IMG/VR virus record: IMGVR_UViG_3300005563_000105
Location: 1-22,606 of that record
DNA length: 22,606 bases
DNA from: a virus
Reading direction: 5' to 3' (one strand)
The translations under genes were made by a program, and so were the position numbers. The notes beneath the pieces were generated by a model. It was not told the origin of the DNA, searched no databases, and worked only from the letters and a program-made list of their open reading frames with translations. Positions 1 through 18,350 of the stretch are shown here, piece after piece (within the stretch, counting starts at the first letter, position 1; each line of letters starts with the position of its first letter).

Positions 1-1227
1 GCTCTAATCAGTCTATCCAATCTATCCGATGACAGAATGAGGGCCGCAAAGAATGGAAAATGGTGGGAAACAGAAGTTCAACGTGCGCTAGCAAATAATT
101 CAGCCGTCTATGCAGACAAACCAGAAATGGAAATCTTCCTAAAAGAATGGTTGAGTCTGATCGAATCAAAATCTGGTGAAAGAGGAATCTTTAACAGAGT
201 CGCAGCAAATAAGAAAGCAAAAGAAAATGGAAGAAGAAAATTTGAGGACTTTGAATTTGGTACAAATCCATGCGGAGAAATCATTCTTCGTTCATGCGGT
301 CTGTGCAATCTAACCGAAGTTGTCGTTCGCCCGGAAGATACTCTGGAAGACCTAAAGAGAAAAGTAGAACTAGCAACAATCCTAGGCACATTCCAATCTA
401 CATTGACAAACTTCAGATATGTTCGTTCTATTTGGAAGAAGAATGCAGAGGAAGAAAGATTGCTTGGAGTTTCAATGACTGGCATCATGGATCATCCTAT
501 CCTGTCAGGAAAAGAAGCCATGGAGGGATTTTCGGCTGACCAAACACTAGAATATTGGTTAAAATCATTGAAAGAACGTGCAGTAGAAACAAACAAGAAA
601 TGGGCTGAAAAACTAGGAATCAATCAATCCGTAGCAATCACTACAGTTAAGCCATCTGGAACAGTAAGTCAACTAGTAGATTCCGCATCCGGGATTCATC
701 CTCGCTATGCAAAATATTACACAAGAACTGTTCGTGCAGATAAGAAAGACCCATTGTCACTATTGATGAGAGATGCCGGAATTCCTTGTGAAGATGATGT
801 AACTAAGCCGGAATCAGTCTGGGTTTTCTCATTCCCACAAAAAGGTCCGGAAGGATCAACATATAGAACTGAAATGTCAGCAATTCAACAATTGGAGCAT
901 TATAGTGTATTCCAAAGATTCTGGTGTGAACACAACCCATCAATCACAGTCTACGTCAAGGACCATGAATGGCTTGATGTTGGTGCTTGGGTTTATCGTA
1001 ATTTTGACCTTATTGGTGGTGTATCTTTCCTACCATACTCTGACCACATTTATAAGCAAGCCCCTTATCAAGAGATTACGGAAGATGAATATAATGAAGC
1101 GGTAAAGAGTTTTCCAACAGTTGATTGGTCTGAAATCTCAACATATGAAAAAGAAGATGCAACAACAAGTAGTCATGATTTGAGTTGTAGTGCAGGCGTC
1201 TGTGAATTGGTGGACCTAACAAAATGA
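1..1227 (+). CDS. nrdJ: Adenosylcobalamin-dependent (class II) ribonucleoside-triphosphate reductase, C-terminal part; 5' end outside window
   Basis: It reduces ribonucleotides to deoxyribonucleotides for phage DNA synthesis, using B12 to create a thiyl radical. The reading frame is open from base 1 (in frame with an internal ATG at 37), so the gene starts upstream of the window. Numbering from that ATG, FGTNPCGEI carries C79 and E81, which match the radical cysteine and glutamate of the Lactobacillus leichmannii-type enzyme. C90 lies 11 residues after C79, the spacing of the redox-active partner cysteine in that family. The SGERGIFNR and KPSGTVSQL segments are also typical. The C-terminus ends in CSAGVC (C384, C389), the shuttle cysteine pair that re-reduces the active site. 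The first redox cysteine would lie upstream. No intein or intron interrupts the visible part. The family assignment is firm; the monomeric RTPR subtype is inferred from spacing. Confidence 0.93.
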   Translation, partial: ALISLSNLSDDRMRAAKNGKWWETEVQRALANNSAVYADKPEMEIFLKEWLSLIESKSGERGIFNRVAANKKAKENGRRKFEDFEFGTNPCGEIILRSCGLCNLTEVVVRPEDTLEDLKRKVELATILGTFQSTLTNFRYVRSIWKKNAEEERLLGVSMTGIMDHPILSGKEAMEGFSADQTLEYWLKSLKERAVETNKKWAEKLGINQSVAITTVKPSGTVSQLVDSASGIHPRYAKYYTRTVRADKKDPLSLLMRDAGIPCEDDVTKPESVWVFSFPQKGPEGSTYRTEMSAIQQLEHYSVFQRFWCEHNPSITVYVKDHEWLDVGAWVYRNFDLIGGVSFLPYSDHIYKQAPYQEITEDEYNEAVKSFPTVDWSEISTYEKEDATTSSHDLSCSAGVCELVDLTK

Positions 1228-4802: not shown

Positions 4803-5294
4803 ATGAATATTCAATGTCCAAACTGCAAGAAAGATTTTGTCTCTGCTAAAAAACATAATTATACACCCAAATTTTGCTCTAGGAGTTGTGCAAATAAAAG
4901 AATATTTTCCGAACAAACAAAAAACAAAATGTCTGAAGGATTTAAACAATGGTGGAAAAATACTTCAGATGAAGATCGAGAATTGTGGAGAAAGTCTAGT
5001 AAAAGTCAGGAAGTTATAAACAAAATTAAAGAAACAAAGAATAGAAATGCAAATGAAGTTCCTTGGGATGATATATGTTTGGCTAGCAAAAAGCGTAGAG
5101 TAAGAAAAGAACAAAATTATGAGTGTTTATTGTGCAAAACATCTATGTGGTGTGGAAAAAAATTGATATTGGAGGTTGACCACATCGATGGAAATGTAGA
5201 AAATAATTCTAGACAAAATCTAAGAGGTTTGTGCCCTAATTGCCACAGCCAAACACCAACATGGCGTAAAGCACACAGAAACAAAAGGAAGTGA
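4803..5294 (+). CDS. HNH homing endonuclease with N-terminal zinc finger
   Basis: This is a free-standing HNH nuclease, a mobile gene type common in phages. An N-terminal C-x2-C...C-x3-C cluster (C5, C8, C25, C29) looks like a zinc-binding DNA-recognition finger. A lysine-rich linker follows. The HNH core at about 105-153 has C108/C111, the catalytic D126-H127 in EVDHIDGN, N139 in RQNLRGLC, and C144-x2-C147-H148. GGAGG seven bases before the ATG supports the start. The gene is visibly more AT-rich, with many AAA and AAT codons, than the genes around it. It sits immediately behind the tRNA genes, as expected for a recent insertion. A role in intron homing cannot be shown, since no intron is visible here. 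Confidence 0.9.
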   Translation: MNIQCPNCKKDFVSAKKHNYTPKFCSRSCANKRIFSEQTKNKMSEGFKQWWKNTSDEDRELWRKSSKSQEVINKIKETKNRNANEVPWDDICLASKKRRVRKEQNYECLLCKTSMWCGKKLILEVDHIDGNVENNSRQNLRGLCPNCHSQTPTWRKAHRNKRK

Positions 5295-8810: not shown

Positions 8811-8825
8811 AAAGGATAAATGAGA

Positions 8826-9032
8826 ATGCTTAGGAAATTCGTCATTGGATTCATTGCTTTTGTTTTCGTTTTGATTATCTGCTGGTTTGGACTAATTGGT
8901 TATGTAGGATACAAAGCCGCAACCTCAGTCCAAGATAAAGGCATTAGTGGTGTTGTGCAGGATTTGTGGTGTGGCAAAACTTCGAATTGCCAACTTCCAA
9001 CTTTGCCAGCAAACGATAGCAATAAGAAGTAA
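8826..9032 (+). CDS. Small membrane-anchored protein with periplasmic tail (68 aa)
   Basis: One long hydrophobic helix, IGFIAFVFVLIICWFGLIGY, lies near the N-terminus. A short polar tail follows with two cysteines (LWCGKTSNCQLP) six residues apart, able to form a disulfide in the periplasm. The ATG at 8826 has the better spacing to AGGA (8813-8816); the ATG at 8820 would add two residues. It ends 35 bases before the AAA+ gene and is the last of this run of membrane genes. Function is unknown. Confidence 0.66.
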   Translation: MLRKFVIGFIAFVFVLIICWFGLIGYVGYKAATSVQDKGISGVVQDLWCGKTSNCQLPTLPANDSNKK

Positions 9033-9067: not shown

Positions 9068-10219
9068 GTGACTTATTTTATTCGTAATGGCTCTCAGTTT
9101 TCGGTAACTGATGAAGCGAATATTGATCTTCACAACAAGCTTCCGGCTGGAAACTATGTTGTGAAATTTCACCCGCAGTCTGGTTTCTATCTTGAGAAGG
9201 TTGACAACTTCGTTCTGCCGACCAAGATTTATGGTGATATCAATGGCTATATGGATCGCATCATTTCCACGTTCTTTAGCCGAGAAAATTCAACTGGCGT
9301 TCTTCTAGAAGGTGAGAAGGGTTCTGGTAAGACTCTGCTGGCTAAGGCTCTCGCAATGAAGCTTGCAAAAGAACACAAGATGCCGACTCTAATCCTGAAT
9401 GCTGCATTCGCTGGTGATGCATTTAACAAGTTTGTTCAAAACATCGATCAACCCGCAATGATGCTTTTCGATGAATTCGAGAAGGTCTATCGCGGCGATT
9501 ACGATGATCCCGATAACAACGACCTCATGTCCCTGGCTCAACAAGCCGCAAATGGCGAGACTGGTGGCGCCCAAGGAAATCTTTTGACCCTGTTCGATGG
9601 TGTCTTCCCGACTCGTAAGCTGTTTGTTCTGACAGTGAACAACAGATATGCTGTCAACAGCCACCTGAAAAACCGTCCGGGCCGCATCTATTACATGATT
9701 ACGTTTGAGGGACTGGATGAGAATTTTCTTCGTCAGTATTGCGACGAAAATCTTCGCGATGATCTTAAGCAATACATCAACAAAATCGTGGCTATCTCCA
9801 AATCCGTTGATCGCTTCAACTTCGACATGCTGAAAGCACTGGTTGAAGAAATGAATCGCTATGGTGAGAATCCTAGAGATGCTGTCAAAATGTTGAACAT
9901 CAATCCGGACCTCAACTATAGAACTCGCTACAACTGCACCTATTTCGATGAAAATGGGCAGGAAGTACCGCAGAAGGAACACGACACGCCTGTTTGGGGT
10001 GGCGATCCGCGTCAAGGCGTCTACATTGAAATGACTCACATGAAAACCAAGAAGGAATCCGGTTGGATTGTGTATGACTTCAAGCAAGATGACTTCGTTA
10101 AGTTTGATATGGAGTCTCAGAAACTCTATTACAAGAATGCGAAAGGACAGCAACTTGTCTTGAGCAGACAGGAAATTCGAGATTATTCTAGCAATTTTGG
10201 TTACGATAATCTCGTTTAA
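9068..10219 (+). CDS. AAA+ ATPase
   Basis: This is an ATP-driven remodelling protein. The Walker A motif GEKGSGKT is at 82-89 and Walker B MMLFDEFEK at 131-139 (D135, E136). A sensor-1-like TVNN is at 189-192, and an arginine-finger candidate segment KNRPGR is at 201-206. These features place it in the classical AAA clade (FtsH, CDC48 or BCS1 type) rather than among helicases. Residues 1-60 form a separate N-terminal domain. Residues about 285-383 form a C-terminal beta-rich domain (PVWGGDPRQGVYIEM, SGWIVYDFKQDDFVKF) with no zinc-protease HExxH motif, so it is not an FtsH protease itself. The GTG start has AAGGA nine bases upstream. It is followed by a one-pass coiled-coil protein and an SPFH protein, suggesting that it works on a membrane scaffold. 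Confidence 0.88.
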   Translation: MTYFIRNGSQFSVTDEANIDLHNKLPAGNYVVKFHPQSGFYLEKVDNFVLPTKIYGDINGYMDRIISTFFSRENSTGVLLEGEKGSGKTLLAKALAMKLAKEHKMPTLILNAAFAGDAFNKFVQNIDQPAMMLFDEFEKVYRGDYDDPDNNDLMSLAQQAANGETGGAQGNLLTLFDGVFPTRKLFVLTVNNRYAVNSHLKNRPGRIYYMITFEGLDENFLRQYCDENLRDDLKQYINKIVAISKSVDRFNFDMLKALVEEMNRYGENPRDAVKMLNINPDLNYRTRYNCTYFDENGQEVPQKEHDTPVWGGDPRQGVYIEMTHMKTKKESGWIVYDFKQDDFVKFDMESQKLYYKNAKGQQLVLSRQEIRDYSSNFGYDNLV

Positions 10220-10238
10220 TAAACAGGAGGCAGTTCAT

Positions 10239-10493
10239 ATGGCATTACTTAGATTGATTGAGTTTATCTTGGTTGTTGGTGGTGCTTACATCATCACCAC
10301 CCAAGTTATTTTCCCGCTGTTCGAAGGACGAGTTTTGTTTCCGTTCTTCAGGGAAAAGAAGTTTGTAGCAGAGTATCGTGAAGTAAAGCAAGAAGCAGCC
10401 GAACTTGAAATGAAAGCTGGAATTGAAGAAATTCGTAAATCTAATTCTGAAAAAGTGAAAGGTGAAAAAGATGGCTCAGATGCAACAAAGTAA
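10239..10493 (+). CDS. Membrane-anchored coiled-coil protein (84 aa)
   Basis: The hydrophobic segment at about residues 5-27 (RLIEFILVVGGAYIITTQVI) is followed by an aromatic and basic stretch (FEGRVLFPFFREKKF) and then a charged helix, EYREVKQEAAELEMKAGIEE, with coiled-coil character. A strong AGGAGG eight bases upstream fixes the start at 10239. Its 3' end overlaps the SPFH gene by 23 nt, so the two are translated together. Its place between the AAA+ and SPFH genes makes it a likely third subunit or adaptor; this is inference. Confidence 0.75.
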   Translation: MALLRLIEFILVVGGAYIITTQVIFPLFEGRVLFPFFREKKFVAEYREVKQEAAELEMKAGIEEIRKSNSEKVKGEKDGSDATK

Positions 10494-11730
10494 TTTCGAA
10501 AATCTCTTTAAGGTCCGCAACATCGTTCTGGCCTCGATTTTCGTTCTAGCACTTGTCGTTTCCCCGTTTGTCATTACGAATCTGTGGGAAAACGTCGATG
10601 CTCACGAAATCATGGTCGTTCAATCTCCGATTGATGGAACGCTGTCTGTCTATACCGATCCGGGCGTCAAGTGGCAGGGATTCGGTAAAGTCACGACCTA
10701 TCCAAGGCGAGCAACGTATGACTTCCTAGCCGGAAAAGGTAAGGACGAAGGCAATTCCAAGAAGCTTCGTTTCAATGATGGTGGACACGGAAATCTGTCG
10801 GGTTCTATCTCTTGGGAAATGCCTCTTGATACCAAGTCGATCATTGCAATTCATAAGACGTTTGGCTCTGCTGAAGGTGTCCAGCAACAAGCTGTCGCAA
10901 AGATGATTGATGCTGCTGTCTATCTGGCGGGACCGCTTATGTCTTCGACTGAATCCTCTGGAGAAAGACGTGCGGAATTGGTCCAGTACATCAACGACCA
11001 AGCTGAAAACGGAGTCTATGTGACCCGCGTCGTAGAGAAAGATGTAAAGGACTCTATGACTGGTGCTCTGAAGCGCGTTACTGCTACTGAAATCGTGCGT
11101 GATGAAAAGGGAAATCCGAAGCGCCAACAAGGATCGATTCTTGCTGACTTCAACATCAAATTGCTTCCGCTTTCTATCTCAGAACTGCGCTATGATGAAG
11201 TCGTAGAAAACCAGATCAAGCAACGTCAGGAAGCTACGACCCAAGTTCAAATCGCTCAAGCGAATTCGAAGAAAGCAGAGCAGGATGCATTGACGATTGA
11301 ATCGCAGGGTAAAGCTAAAGCTGCTGATGCAAAATGGAAACAAGAAACCATCAAAGCACAGGCTGTCACTGAAGCCCAGCAAAAGCTTGAAGTTGCTAGA
11401 CTAGCTGCACAGGAAGCCGAGCAATACAAGCGCGAACAAGTTCTTCGTGGTGAAGGTGATGCACAACGCCGTCAACTTGTTATGAACGCTGACGGAGCCT
11501 TGGATAAGAAGCTTGAGGCTTATGTAGAAGTCCAGAAAAATTGGGCAGAAGCATTCTCGAAATTTGGCGGACAGATGGTTCCGGGTGTTGTCATGGGCGG
11601 AAGCGCCTCTGGTAGTTCCGCTGCTGGAAATGCTCAAGGACTCGTTGAACTTCTGACAGCCAAAACTGCAAGGGATTTGGGAATGAATCTCGAAGTTGCA
11701 GGACAGAACGCAACAGCCAAGAAGAAGTAA
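10471..11730 (+). CDS. SPFH/band-7 (prohibitin-stomatin-HflK/C family) membrane protein
   Basis: This is an integral membrane scaffold protein. The N-terminal helix spans about 17-37 (NIVLASIFVLALVVSPFVIT). It is followed by NVDAHEIMVVQSPIDGTLSV and YTDPGVKWQG, the typical opening of an SPFH domain (about 40-250). A long alanine-, glutamine- and glutamate-rich coiled coil comes next (about 255-345, with KAKAADAKWKQETIKAQAVT and KREQVLRGEGDAQRRQ). The glycine/serine-rich tail GGSASGSSAAGNAQG precedes a short C-terminal helix. SPFH proteins such as HflK/HflC form large cages around FtsH in bacteria. The ATG at 10471 is preferred to a GTG at 10462 because AAGGTG lies six bases before it. The length (419 aa) matches HflK. 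A terminator follows. Confidence 0.88.
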   Translation: MAQMQQSNFENLFKVRNIVLASIFVLALVVSPFVITNLWENVDAHEIMVVQSPIDGTLSVYTDPGVKWQGFGKVTTYPRRATYDFLAGKGKDEGNSKKLRFNDGGHGNLSGSISWEMPLDTKSIIAIHKTFGSAEGVQQQAVAKMIDAAVYLAGPLMSSTESSGERRAELVQYINDQAENGVYVTRVVEKDVKDSMTGALKRVTATEIVRDEKGNPKRQQGSILADFNIKLLPLSISELRYDEVVENQIKQRQEATTQVQIAQANSKKAEQDALTIESQGKAKAADAKWKQETIKAQAVTEAQQKLEVARLAAQEAEQYKREQVLRGEGDAQRRQLVMNADGALDKKLEAYVEVQKNWAEAFSKFGGQMVPGVVMGGSASGSSAAGNAQGLVELLTAKTARDLGMNLEVAGQNATAKKK

Positions 11731-11753: not shown

Positions 11754-11792
11754 CCGACAAATAATAAAGCCGCCACTCGCGGCTTTTGTCGG
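11754..11792 (+). terminator. Rho-independent terminator after the SPFH gene
   Basis: The inner stem AAAGCCGC/GCGGCTTT (11766-11773 with 11779-11786) closes on the loop CACTC. An outer stem CCGACA/TGTCGG (11754-11759 with 11787-11792) extends it across a bulge. Four T residues at the base of the inner stem give a short U tract. It separates the AAA+/SPFH module from the gene at 11815. Confidence 0.78.
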
Positions 11793-12063: not shown

Positions 12064-12497
12064 AGAAAAATATTTACGAAATCTTGGACGAATTCAAGGC
12101 TGCAAAAAACGAAACAGAGCGCAGGAAAGTTCTTGTTGACAATGCAACACCAGACCTGATTGCATTTCTGCAACTTGCATTTTCACCAAGCGTCAAGTTC
12201 ACGATCAAAGAAGCTGCATACAAGCCATCAAACGCTCCGGCTGGAATGGGGTACACAAACATGGGTAATGCGATCAAGAAGTCCTATCTGTTTATTGAGG
12301 GACACCCAAAACGTGCTGCTGCATTGACAGAGGAAAAGACAAAACTTTTGTTGACTCAGATTCTAGAATCACTAGAAGCAAGAGAAGCAGAGATGTATGT
12401 AGCAATGCTGAAGAAACAAGTTAAAGTACCGAATCTTACATTGAAACTTCTAGAGAAGACATTTCCGGGATTTCTGGAAACTCCAATCAAACTATGA
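12060..12497 (+). CDS. DUF6433-like phage protein (145 aa)
   Basis: The sequence has the layout of a phage family that I recall as DUF6433: an N-terminal helix NIYEILDEFKAAKNETERRK, then DLIAFLQLAFSPSVKFTI, then AAYKPSNAPAGMGYTNMG, a long helix LLLTQILESLEAREAEMYVA and a C-terminal LLEKTFPGFLE. It appears in many T4-like phages without a known role. The assignment is from memory of the motif order and is not certain. The gene overlaps both neighbours (ATGA at each end): the zinc-finger gene upstream and the GIY-YIG endonuclease downstream. Confidence 0.7.
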   Translation: MKKNIYEILDEFKAAKNETERRKVLVDNATPDLIAFLQLAFSPSVKFTIKEAAYKPSNAPAGMGYTNMGNAIKKSYLFIEGHPKRAAALTEEKTKLLLTQILESLEAREAEMYVAMLKKQVKVPNLTLKLLEKTFPGFLETPIKL

Positions 12498-13078
12498 AAT
12501 TGTATTTTCTAAAAAATACAATAAATGGTAAATGTTATGTTGGCTTTACTAAACGTCAGGACATTTCGGCGAGAATTAAAGAACATTTTTCTAGTGCAAA
12601 CTGTGGTTCAAATAATTGTCCAAAATTATATAAAGCTATCAGACATTATGGTGCTGATAAATTTGTATGGCAAGAATTATATGAAGGATATGATGCACAC
12701 ATAAAAGAAGAAGGTTTTATTTTACTCATGGGTCATTATAATGTTGCACCGGGAGGCGAAGGCAACGGAACAACAAAAGGGTATAAACACACGGAACAAG
12801 CTAGGAAAAATATGTCTATGGCTCATATCGGAATAACTCATTCGGAAGAATGCAGAAGTAAAATTAGCAAATCTAACATAGGAAAACATTCACAACCAAA
12901 AAGTAAAGAAGCAAGAGAAAGGATGAGTTTGGCAAAGAAGGGTATTGTTTGGCACCCAAATATTGTGAAAATAAGAACTAAATCTATTGTAGAAGCTTAT
13001 AAAAATAAACCATCAAAAGAAGTGAGTGATAGAAATAGGAGAGCGTGGGAAACTAGGAGAAAGAATAATGCAACTTAA
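12494..13078 (+). CDS. GIY-YIG homing endonuclease with NUMOD3 repeats
   Basis: The N-terminal nuclease domain (1-90) has the GIY-YIG pair in degenerate form: LYFLKNTINGKCYVGFT, where YFL and YVG stand for GIY and YIG. R27 in ISARIKEH and an acidic E72/E73 pair follow. The loop NVAPGGEGN is typical. Residues 94-152 contain three NUMOD3-type DNA-binding units with the G-x(2-3)-H/S-E-x2-R/K pattern (KGYKHTEQARKNMS, IGITHSEECRSKIS, HSQPKSKEARERMS). The gene is strongly AT-rich and uses AAA, AAT and ATA codons more than its neighbours, a sign of recent transfer. It fits exactly between the preceding gene (ATGA overlap) and the glycosyltransferase (11-nt overlap), so its arrival broke neither. Confidence 0.92.
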   Translation: MKLYFLKNTINGKCYVGFTKRQDISARIKEHFSSANCGSNNCPKLYKAIRHYGADKFVWQELYEGYDAHIKEEGFILLMGHYNVAPGGEGNGTTKGYKHTEQARKNMSMAHIGITHSEECRSKISKSNIGKHSQPKSKEARERMSLAKKGIVWHPNIVKIRTKSIVEAYKNKPSKEVSDRNRRAWETRRKNNAT

Positions 13079-15945: not shown

Positions 15946-16983
15946 ATGAAAAAATTCGATACTATCGTCTACATCGGACGATTCCAACCGTTTCACAACG
16001 GACACAAAAATACAATCCTTCATGCAGCTACGCTCGCAAAACAAGTGATTGTTATCATTGGCTCTGCAAACGAGCCGCGCACATTCAAGAATCCCTTCAC
16101 TGTCGATGAACGAGAACTGATGATTAGTAAATCGTGCCTTGACAGTAACAACCTTCTTCCCGACGGCGCAATTCTAACGATTAAATCAATCGAAAATTCT
16201 CAATACAACGATGAAGCATGGGCTGTTTCTGTCCAGACAATCGTTGATCAAAATTCCGTCGGTGATGACATTGCAATCATCGGCCACAACAAAGACGAGT
16301 CATCCTATTATTTGCAGATGTTTCCGCAATGGCCGTTCATTAATGAACAGCTTGTCGAGCCGCTTGATGCAACTCAAATTAGAAACATCTATTTTTCTAA
16401 CGCAAATAACCCAAACTGGTTCAAAGGGGTTCTTCCAGAACCCGTTCTAAAATATTTGGGTCTTTTTGCTATCGGTGATGCATACGAACAAATTTGCAAG
16501 GAACGTAAATTCATCGAAGACTATAAGAAACAATACGAGAATCTTCCGTATCCTCCGATCTTCACGACCGTTGATGCTGTCGTGATTCAAGCGGGACACG
16601 TTCTGATGGTCAAACGCCGTGCAGAACCCGGAAAGGGATTGCTAGCTTTCCCAGGCGGATTTGTCGATGCGAGAAAGGACAAATCGCTGGAAGATGCAAT
16701 GATTCGTGAACTGAAGGAAGAAACAAAGATTGATGTACCGGAAAAGGTCATTCGTGGCAGCATCGAAAAGATGAAAGTCTTTGATGCAATCGAACGATCT
16801 GCAAGAGGTAGAACAATCACCCATGCATATTACATCTACTTCAACAATGGTGAATATGCACTGCCTAAAGTGAAGGGTGGAGATGATGCAGAGAAAGCAT
16901 TTTGGATTCCGATTTCGCAAGTGAAACGATCTGAAACTTTTGAAGATCATTTCGATATTTTGATGCACTTCCTTGGACGATAG
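15946..16983 (+). CDS. nadM: Bifunctional NMN adenylyltransferase / Nudix hydrolase
   Basis: The N-terminal domain (1-180) joins NMN and ATP to give NAD+. It has GRFQPFHNGH (11-20), the nucleotidyltransferase GxxxPxHxGH motif, and LDATQIRN (140-147), the counterpart of the ISSTxxR motif. The C-terminal domain is a Nudix hydrolase with the box GGFVDARKDKSLEDAMIREL-KEET (about 237-260), including the REL-x-EE core. In bacterial NadM-Nudix proteins the second domain hydrolyses ADP-ribose or similar products. The length (345 aa) is that of the bacterial fusion. The nicotinamide phosphoribosyltransferase gene follows 38 nt later, completing a two-step salvage route. Its own promoter and leader hairpin lie upstream. 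Confidence 0.93.
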   Translation: MKKFDTIVYIGRFQPFHNGHKNTILHAATLAKQVIVIIGSANEPRTFKNPFTVDERELMISKSCLDSNNLLPDGAILTIKSIENSQYNDEAWAVSVQTIVDQNSVGDDIAIIGHNKDESSYYLQMFPQWPFINEQLVEPLDATQIRNIYFSNANNPNWFKGVLPEPVLKYLGLFAIGDAYEQICKERKFIEDYKKQYENLPYPPIFTTVDAVVIQAGHVLMVKRRAEPGKGLLAFPGGFVDARKDKSLEDAMIRELKEETKIDVPEKVIRGSIEKMKVFDAIERSARGRTITHAYYIYFNNGEYALPKVKGGDDAEKAFWIPISQVKRSETFEDHFDILMHFLGR

Positions 16984-17021
16984 ACGTTCAAGTTTATACA
17001 CACATTAGAAAGGAAATTTCT

Positions 17022-18350
17022 ATGAACACGTTTAATCACAATTTGATTCTTAAGACAGACTCCTACAAACTCAGTATGCCGGTGCAATATCCAGAAGGCA
17101 CCGAAGTAGTTCACTCATACATCGAAAGTCGTGGTGGAAAATACGACAAACTGATTTTCGCTGGATTGCAACCACTTCTGCGCGAATATCTGTCTCTGCA
17201 AGTTACCAAAGAAATGATCGATGAGGCTGAGGTTATTGTAAAGGCTCACGGAGAACCGTTCTATCGTGAGAATTGGGAATACATCGTGAAGACTCACAAC
17301 GGATATCTGCCACTCAGGATTCGTGCAGTTGCGGAAGGAACTGTTGTCAAACCTCACCAAGTTCTTCTGACAATCGAAAACACCGATCCGAAATGTTTCT
17401 GGCTGACTACGCACGTCGAAACGATGTTGCTCCGTGCGATCTGGTACATGACGACCGTTGCAACGAATTCGTGGACTTCGAAACAATTGATCCGCGAATA
17501 CCTGGAAGAAACTGGTGATCCGTCTGGACTCAGTTTTAAACTGCATGACTTTGGAGCCCGTGGTGTTTCTAGCGGTGAATCCGCAATGCTGGCTGGTGCA
17601 GCCCACCTGATCAATTTCATGGGAACGGACACAATCGAGGGAGTCTTGGGAGCGATGAAATACTACGATGCTCCTGTCTCTGGATTCTCGATTCCTGCAA
17701 TGGAACATAGTACAGTTACCTCTTGGGGTAAGGATCATGAAGCTGATGCATTCAGGAACATGCTGAAGCATTATGCAAAACCCGGAACTCTTGTCGCATG
17801 TGTTTCGGATAGCTATGACATTATGAATGCGGCTAAGAACATTTGGGGAAAGGAACTTAGAGATGAAGTCATTAAGAGTGGTGCTATCATTGTTGTGCGC
17901 CCTGACTCCGGTGACCCTGCTGTTGTTGTTACCGACGTTGTTCGCGCTCTGGACGAGGCATTCGGGTCTGTGATCAATGCAAAAGGCTACAAAGTCCTGA
18001 ATAATGTTCGTGTCATTCAAGGCGATGGAATCACGACAGAGACCATTCGTGCGATTTTGTTTAGCCTGAAGTGTGCTGGATACTCAGCAGACAACGTTGC
18101 ATTCGGACAAGGCGGAGCCTTGTTGCAACAAGTGAATAGAGACACTTGCATGTTTGCAATGAAGTGTTCTGCAATCAAGATCAACGGTGAATGGAAGGAT
18201 GTTTTCAAACAACCCGTTGGCGATGAATCAAAGTGGTCGAAACGTGGTCGCTTTGAACACGATGAACATCTCGAAACGAAGTTCATCAATGGTAAGTTGT
18301 ATAACGAAAGCAAATTTGAGGAAGTGAGGGCTAGAAGCAATGTTCAATAA
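17022..18350 (+). CDS. nadV: Nicotinamide phosphoribosyltransferase
   Basis: It makes NMN from nicotinamide and PRPP, the first step of NAD+ salvage. The family motifs are clear: NLILKTDSYKLSMPVQYP at the N-terminus, KLHDFGARGVSSGESAML (173-190), SIPAMEHSTVTSWGKDHEAD (223-242) with H229 matching the phosphorylated histidine of human NAMPT, VSDSYDIMNA (261-270), VVRPDSGDP (291-299) with the R293/D295 pair that binds substrate, and QGDGIT. The length (442 aa) is normal. AAAGGA precedes the start. With the NadM-Nudix gene it forms a complete nicotinamide-to-NAD+ route. In other phages this pair is known to rebuild NAD+ destroyed by bacterial immune NADases. The next small gene overlaps its end by 11 nt. 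Confidence 0.96.
   Translation: MNTFNHNLILKTDSYKLSMPVQYPEGTEVVHSYIESRGGKYDKLIFAGLQPLLREYLSLQVTKEMIDEAEVIVKAHGEPFYRENWEYIVKTHNGYLPLRIRAVAEGTVVKPHQVLLTIENTDPKCFWLTTHVETMLLRAIWYMTTVATNSWTSKQLIREYLEETGDPSGLSFKLHDFGARGVSSGESAMLAGAAHLINFMGTDTIEGVLGAMKYYDAPVSGFSIPAMEHSTVTSWGKDHEADAFRNMLKHYAKPGTLVACVSDSYDIMNAAKNIWGKELRDEVIKSGAIIVVRPDSGDPAVVVTDVVRALDEAFGSVINAKGYKVLNNVRVIQGDGITTETIRAILFSLKCAGYSADNVAFGQGGALLQQVNRDTCMFAMKCSAIKINGEWKDVFKQPVGDESKWSKRGRFEHDEHLETKFINGKLYNESKFEEVRARSNVQ

What the first reader, a model, noticed from the sequence alone, without database searches (positions are those of the whole stretch)
9068..11730. Phage-encoded AAA+ ATPase / coiled-coil membrane protein / SPFH operon
A classical AAA+ ATPase, a one-pass coiled-coil protein and an HflK-sized SPFH protein are consecutive. 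The second and third genes overlap, and a terminator closes the set. In bacteria SPFH proteins (HflK/HflC) enclose the AAA+ protease FtsH in a membrane cage. Here the ATPase lacks the HExxH protease motif and instead has its own N- and C-terminal domains. That points to a remodelling machine at a membrane cage rather than a protease. It could modify the host membrane, take over or blunt FtsH-HflKC, or organise a replication or assembly site. I know of no described function for this trio.
Basis: partly seen in the sequence, partly recalled or inferred. Interest (0 to 1): 0.72.

Follow-up and report, generated by a model that had tools for sequence, protein, structure and literature searches.

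The report
Phage SPFH cage with small membrane partner
The three genes are real, but only two belong together: phages and many bacteria share a membrane-cage (SPFH) protein with an undescribed small membrane protein encoded right before it, while the neighbouring ATPase is an unrelated phage gene that usually travels without them.

Summary
The three ORFs exist as described: a classical AAA ATPase without HExxH (9068-10219), an 84-aa one-pass helical protein (10239-10493) and a 419-aa SPFH protein (10471-11730), followed by a stem-loop with a short T-tract. The proposed three-gene machine is not supported. It is phrog_2376, abundant in large phages: 0 of 80 viral loci centred on it carry SPFH within 8 kb, 0 of 9 isolate genomes and 0 of 27 long contigs carry SPFH at all, and only 3 of 50 SPFH-bearing records carry a strong match to it. 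Its recurrent neighbours are Nampt, NadM, a macro-domain protein and rIIA/rIIB. The conserved unit is the other two genes. A small one-pass ORF lies directly upstream of this SPFH family in 69/73 viral and 59/66 cellular loci, against 7-9% of control genes. Viral and cellular SPFH sequences interleave, with at least 13 forced changes on the tree. Charge bias puts the SPFH domain outside the cytoplasm, as in HflK/C, and the small protein's coiled coil inside. The small protein matches no Pfam, NCBIfam or PHROG family. Most likely it is a dedicated subunit or adaptor of an SPFH cage. What the cage does is unknown.

The parts
9068..10219 (+). classical AAA ATPase, phrog_2376, Bcs1/Cdc48-like AAA domain with N-terminal beta domain and C-terminal beta domain, no protease motif; neighbour, probably not part of the module
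   Evidence: independence:
10239..10493 (+). 84-aa one-pass membrane protein, motif QVIFPLFEGRVLFPFFR after the TM, then helical tail predicted cytoplasmic; no Pfam/NCBIfam/PHROG family
10471..11730 (+). 419-aa SPFH (band 7) protein, N-terminal TM about 18-36, SPFH domain 39-241, coiled coil 243-363; phrog_11908
11766..11786 (.). stem-loop closing the set, terminator-like with short T-tract on the + strand

Best explanation
The module is two genes, a small one-pass protein and an SPFH protein, and the AAA upstream is an accidental neighbour that is probably co-transcribed. SHOWN computationally: the pair is conserved in synteny across diverse phages and bacteria; the SPFH protein has the HflK/C-prohibitin fold; the two proteins have opposite charge bias around their TM helices. 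INFERRED: the SPFH protein inserts N-in and assembles its SPFH and coiled-coil domains into a ring or dome on the outer face of the cytoplasmic membrane, fencing off a membrane patch. INFERRED: the small protein inserts N-out with its TM in or against that ring; its juxtamembrane P-x4-8-FPxFR (or PFYY) segment sits at the cytoplasmic face, and its coiled coil couples the external cage to the cytoplasm, as a ring subunit, lock or adaptor for cytoplasmic partners. In phages the module would stabilise or partition the host envelope, or shelter membrane proteins, during infection. Which of these it does is not known.
For: Small one-pass ORF directly upstream in 69/73 viral and 59/66 cellular SPFH loci against 20/214 and 15/218 control genes (Fisher 1e-42 and 1e-38; 46 of 50 and 31 of 33 clusters at 70% identity). 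SPFH fold in the PDB comparison. Charge bias: N-side positive in 140/144 SPFH; C-side positive in 108/128 small proteins. Small-protein type follows the SPFH tree (11 changes against 46-49 in three shuffles), so the pair is co-inherited; virus and cell sequences interleave. AAA independence.
Against: No interface was computed (only single chains could be folded). Topology rests on hydropathy and charge. The small-protein subtypes share little sequence (mean column identity 22%) and may not all be homologous. A Nitrospirota clade (L139-L141, L147) and one phage group (L034) lack it. Four more distant named phages with SPFH (MQM1, CHOED, Astolliot, phiN3; about 25-27% identity) lack a TM ORF directly upstream. 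In L081 the small gene lies downstream.
Confidence: 0.6

Rival explanations
1. One reading: the AAA docks on the small protein's cytoplasmic coiled coil, below an SPFH cage, and remodels membrane proteins without proteolysis.
For: Consecutive genes with 19-nt spacing and a common stem-loop; the small protein's coiled coil is predicted on the cytoplasmic side, where a soluble AAA could bind; the AAA fold is closest to Bcs1, YjoB and Cdc48, unfoldases/translocases; other AAA families lie beside the pair in some phage groups (L048, L058, L059, L062).
Against: phrog_2376 and the pair occur mostly apart. None of 68 cellular loci has a related AAA nearby. AAA hits within 5 kb of SPFH: about 5 of 50 records expected by chance, about 10 counted by hand, some below the family cut-off, from about five phage groups and at least three AAA families.
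Confidence: 0.1
2. The phage SPFH protein co-assembles with or titrates the host HflK/C-FtsH complex and so shields phage membrane proteins from FtsH or changes its activity; the small protein is the docking part.
For: Same fold and same predicted topology as HflK/C; the FtsH-HflKC axis matters for lambda (PMC1838920, PMC3053222; abstracts).
Against: The family profile barely matches HflK, HflC, QmcA or YqiK by sequence. The same pair sits on bacterial chromosomes between housekeeping genes, where a decoy role makes little sense.
Confidence: 0.15
3. On the ATPase alone (compatible with the best explanation): it belongs functionally with phage NAD/ADP-ribose metabolism and rII genes, and only by chance lies upstream of the SPFH pair here.
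For: Near the AAA in 80 viral loci: Nampt 25, NadM 22, rIIA 16, rIIB 17, macro-domain 12; Nampt 78-81 bp away in 14 loci; NadR and PnuC directly upstream in phage OC; the window has a NadM-like and a Nampt-like gene at 15946-18350.
Against: These genes are common in large T4-like genomes, so synteny may reflect shared ancestry; no genome-wide control was made.
Confidence: 0.35

Closest known systems
HflK/HflC (SPFH3), periplasmic cage around FtsH
   Same: N-terminal TM, SPFH domain, long coiled coil, predicted extracytoplasmic dome; E. coli HflK is also 419 aa; top Foldseek matches include 7vhq and 7wi3
   Different: no convincing sequence match to either; single SPFH gene rather than a K/C pair; partner is a small protein of opposite charge bias; no FtsH-type AAA nearby; the small gene downstream of hflC (yjeT, DUF2065) does not match the small-protein profile
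SPFH-NfeD operons (QmcA-YbbJ and flotillin-type pairs)
   Same: SPFH gene with a dedicated membrane-protein partner in an operon; QmcA-YbbJ solved as a complex (8z5g)
   Different: partner is about 80 aa, one-pass and usually upstream; YbbJ (NfeD) and YqiJ do not match the small-protein profile; no NfeD family among Pfam matches
Prohibitin, stomatin, erlin
   Same: same fold (46 PDB chains with E <= 0.001)
   Different: sequence identity only 9-16% in the structural alignments
phage phrog_11908 / crAss001 gp91 'SPFH-domain/band7-family protein'
   Same: same protein family (35% identity to gp91), also with a small one-pass protein upstream (gp92)
   Different: described only by annotation; I found no paper on a partner
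phrog_2376 'ATPase' and the Bcs1-like phage AAA proteins discussed for jumbo phages in PMC7824862
   Same: AAA domain, N-terminal beta domain, fold closest to Bcs1, YjoB and Cdc48
   Different: no TM and no protease motif; unlinked to SPFH

Membership tests
SPFH / band 7 superfamily (PF01145) | SPFH domain by profile | tested here: met
   PF01145 28.3 bits, cut-off 23.6
SPFH / band 7 superfamily (PF01145) | SPFH fold followed by long coiled coil | tested here: met
   model and PDB matches to HflK/C, prohibitin, erlin
SPFH / band 7 superfamily (PF01145) | assembles into a ring or cage | not testable with these tools
   only single chains could be predicted
HflK/HflC subfamily | sequence membership | tested here: not met
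   A5 profile against E. coli HflK E 0.002 in a 7-sequence database with short partial hits only; hhalign probability 8%
HflK/HflC subfamily | N-in topology with extracytoplasmic SPFH domain | tested here: inconclusive
   charge bias fits in 140/144; not an experiment
HflK/HflC subfamily | tandem K and C genes | tested here: not met
   single SPFH gene in the window; no second family member seen next to it in the tabulated loci
HflK/HflC subfamily | binds FtsH | not testable with these tools
   no complex prediction available
SPFH-NfeD pair | NfeD partner gene | tested here: not met
   no NfeD match for the window's neighbours or for 20 small proteins in Pfam; the profile does not match YbbJ
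Bcs1-like AAA | AAA domain with closest fold to Bcs1 | tested here: met
   best PDB matches 9gs2, 7w42, 6u1y; TM-score about 0.4 on the query
Bcs1-like AAA | TM anchor and Bcs1-type middle domain | tested here: not met
   no TM; N-terminal part is a small beta domain
FtsH-type AAA protease | HExxH zinc protease motif | tested here: not met

The most novel reading that the evidence does not exclude
A previously unnamed two-subunit SPFH machine, made of an external cage plus a cytoplasm-facing one-pass subunit, is carried by bacteria of several phyla, including reduced Patescibacteria, and has been exchanged repeatedly with phages, which use it to hold or partition the host membrane during infection.
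Probability: 0.35. Interest if true: 0.7.

Novelty: new variant of a known kind. Interest (0 to 1): 0.5.

Why it matters
SPFH cages are widespread, but many have no known partner or function. A dedicated small partner that follows one SPFH family through phages, Patescibacteria and Bacteroidota gives a concrete, testable subunit for a cage system and a handle on why phages carry SPFH genes. Replacing the trio idea with the pair also redirects work on the phage ATPase towards its real neighbours, NAD salvage and rII genes.

Tried and rejected
Trio as a conserved unit: rejected from both directions. AAA proteins in general enriched near SPFH: no clear excess over about 5 of 50 records expected. 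Membership of the SPFH in HflK, HflC, QmcA or YqiK families: weak or no sequence match. Sequence search of PDB with the first SPFH alignment: nothing, only fold comparison worked. Small protein in Pfam, NCBIfam, PHROGs: only scattered weak matches. PADLOC: no credible defence match. Literature search for phage SPFH function: annotations only, no functional study found in the held library; the 2009 survey of prokaryotic SPFH families (PMC2636767) lists 12 subfamilies and does not mention phages. Two family scans failed on a wrong frame, one alignment on a wrong frame.

Full report
What is there. The window is a 22,606-base IMG/VR virus record with no larger assembly behind it. A stem-loop follows at 11766-11786, with only four T on the + strand and scored as terminator-like on the - strand. 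The AAA has Walker A, Walker B and the NRPGR segment, no HExxH and no TM.

What the proteins are. The SPFH protein passes the PF01145 cut-off and matches phrog_11908, function unknown. Its AlphaFold model (66 sequences, pLDDT 82) has a TM helix, an SPFH fold and a 120-residue coiled coil. Foldseek gives 46 PDB chains at E <= 0.001: HflK/C, prohibitin, erlin, flotillin, stomatin, QmcA and vault protein. By sequence the family is only marginally similar to E. coli HflK, HflC, QmcA or YqiK, and a profile search of PDB sequences found nothing. The AAA is phrog_2376, closest in sequence to the Cdc48 D2 domain and in fold to Bcs1 and YjoB. The small protein has no family in Pfam, NCBIfam or PHROGs.

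The trio test. This is what is found. Nine isolate phages with the AAA (Pumpernickel, PD114, OC, Atu_ph07, Tunturi_3, Mel-JY01, LpeD, LAh_9, FKP3) have no member of this SPFH family anywhere; the same search found SPFH in L018, L024 and L033, which serve as positive controls. In 80 viral loci centred on the AAA no SPFH or small gene lies within 8 kb, and 27 long AAA-bearing contigs contain none (fragments, so absence is not absolute). Conversely only 3 of 50 SPFH records hold a strong phrog_2376 match, about 15, 4 and 2 kb from SPFH. Other AAA families sit beside the pair in some phage groups (phrog_10440 in L048, L058, L059, L062; a phrog_1297 ATPase in the L073-L080 group). About 5 of 50 records would be expected to have some AAA match within 5 kb by chance. 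My hand count from the coordinates is about ten, including matches below the cut-off, from about five phage groups, so there is no clear excess.

What the ATPase keeps company with. Among the 80 AAA loci, Nampt is near the AAA in 25 (14 of them 78-81 bp away), NadM in 22, rIIA in 16, rIIB in 17 and a macro-domain protein in 12 (rIIA/rIIB identity checked in PHROGs). Phage OC has NadR and PnuC directly upstream. The window itself has a NadM-like gene at 15946-16983 and a Nampt-like gene at 17022-18350. Many of these phages are related, so this is a lead and not a test of function.

The real unit. A scan of viral contigs with the SPFH alignment gave 80 loci, and a scan of bacterial and archaeal genomes gave 68. 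Directly upstream on the same strand lies a small one-pass ORF in 69 of 73 usable viral loci and 59 of 66 cellular loci, against 20 of 214 and 15 of 218 control genes of at least 250 aa in the same loci. After clustering at 70% identity it is 46 of 50 and 31 of 33. In three of the four remaining viral loci (L023, L061, L081) the profile finds the small gene displaced, overlapping or downstream. The scan did not select for the small gene. Most small proteins share a TM, then P-x4-8-FPxFR (P26 in 97%, F34 in 86%, R38 in 64% of aligned sequences); the crAss-like and Bacteroidales branch has IPFYY instead. Small-protein type needs 11 changes on the SPFH tree against 46-49 in three shuffles, so the two genes are inherited together. 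crAss001 gp92-gp91, Thalassa and pVp-1 show the arrangement in isolates; four more distant phage SPFH genes do not.

Phage or bacterial. Viral and cellular SPFH sequences interleave; starred branches force at least 13 changes of label. Several cellular loci are clearly chromosomal by the look of their neighbours, read from sequence: between a ribosomal operon and hrcA-grpE-dnaK (L120), beside secD-secF (L123), between a transketolase-like gene and leuS in Bacteroidales. MAG contamination by phage contigs cannot be excluded for the short ones. So the module is a bacterial and viral one, exchanged more than once; the direction is not resolved.

Topology and mechanism. Positive residues lie on the N side of the SPFH TM in 140 of 144 sequences and on the C side of the small protein's TM in 108 of 128. 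By the positive-inside rule the SPFH domain is outside the cytoplasm, as in HflK/C (periplasmic cage: PMC12048511), and the small protein's coiled coil is inside. I therefore infer an external SPFH cage with a one-pass partner that reaches the cytoplasm. Association, cage formation and function are inferred, not shown.

Standing. Fold and domain membership in SPFH are met. Membership in HflK/C or SPFH-NfeD systems is not. The pairing of this SPFH family with an unnamed small membrane protein across phages and bacteria seems undescribed in the held library, which lacks most subscription papers. I rate it a new variant of a known kind.

Noticed in passing
window 15946-18350: NadM-like nucleotidyltransferase (with Nudix-like C-terminus) followed by a Nampt-like gene: phage NAD salvage pair; in L015 a Nampt-like gene lies directly upstream of the small-SPFH pair.
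   Followed up: partly
L187-L266: phrog_2376 AAA is recurrently next to Nampt, NadM, macro-domain, rIIA and rIIB genes; Nampt 78-81 bp away in 14 loci. A possible NAD/ADP-ribose or rII-linked phage ATPase.
   Followed up: partly
L048, L058, L059, L062: A different AAA family (phrog_10440, 464-477 aa, with its own N-terminal domain) sits close beside the small-SPFH pair, upstream or downstream.
   Followed up: partly
L139, L140, L141, L147: Nitrospirota (including Candidatus Magnetobacterium casense) carry the SPFH protein without the small upstream gene.
   Followed up: no
L169-L177: Salinivirgaceae have a patatin-like phospholipase gene directly downstream of the SPFH gene in five loci.
   Followed up: no
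window 8820-9032: 70-aa small one-pass protein (DUF7248 / phrog_2401 'periplasmic protein') just upstream of the AAA; another small membrane protein of unknown role.
   Followed up: no
window 37-1227: Ribonucleotide-reductase-like ORF, read by eye; HNH-like (4803-5294) and GIY-YIG (12494-13078) homing endonuclease genes and four tRNAs are also present.
   Followed up: no
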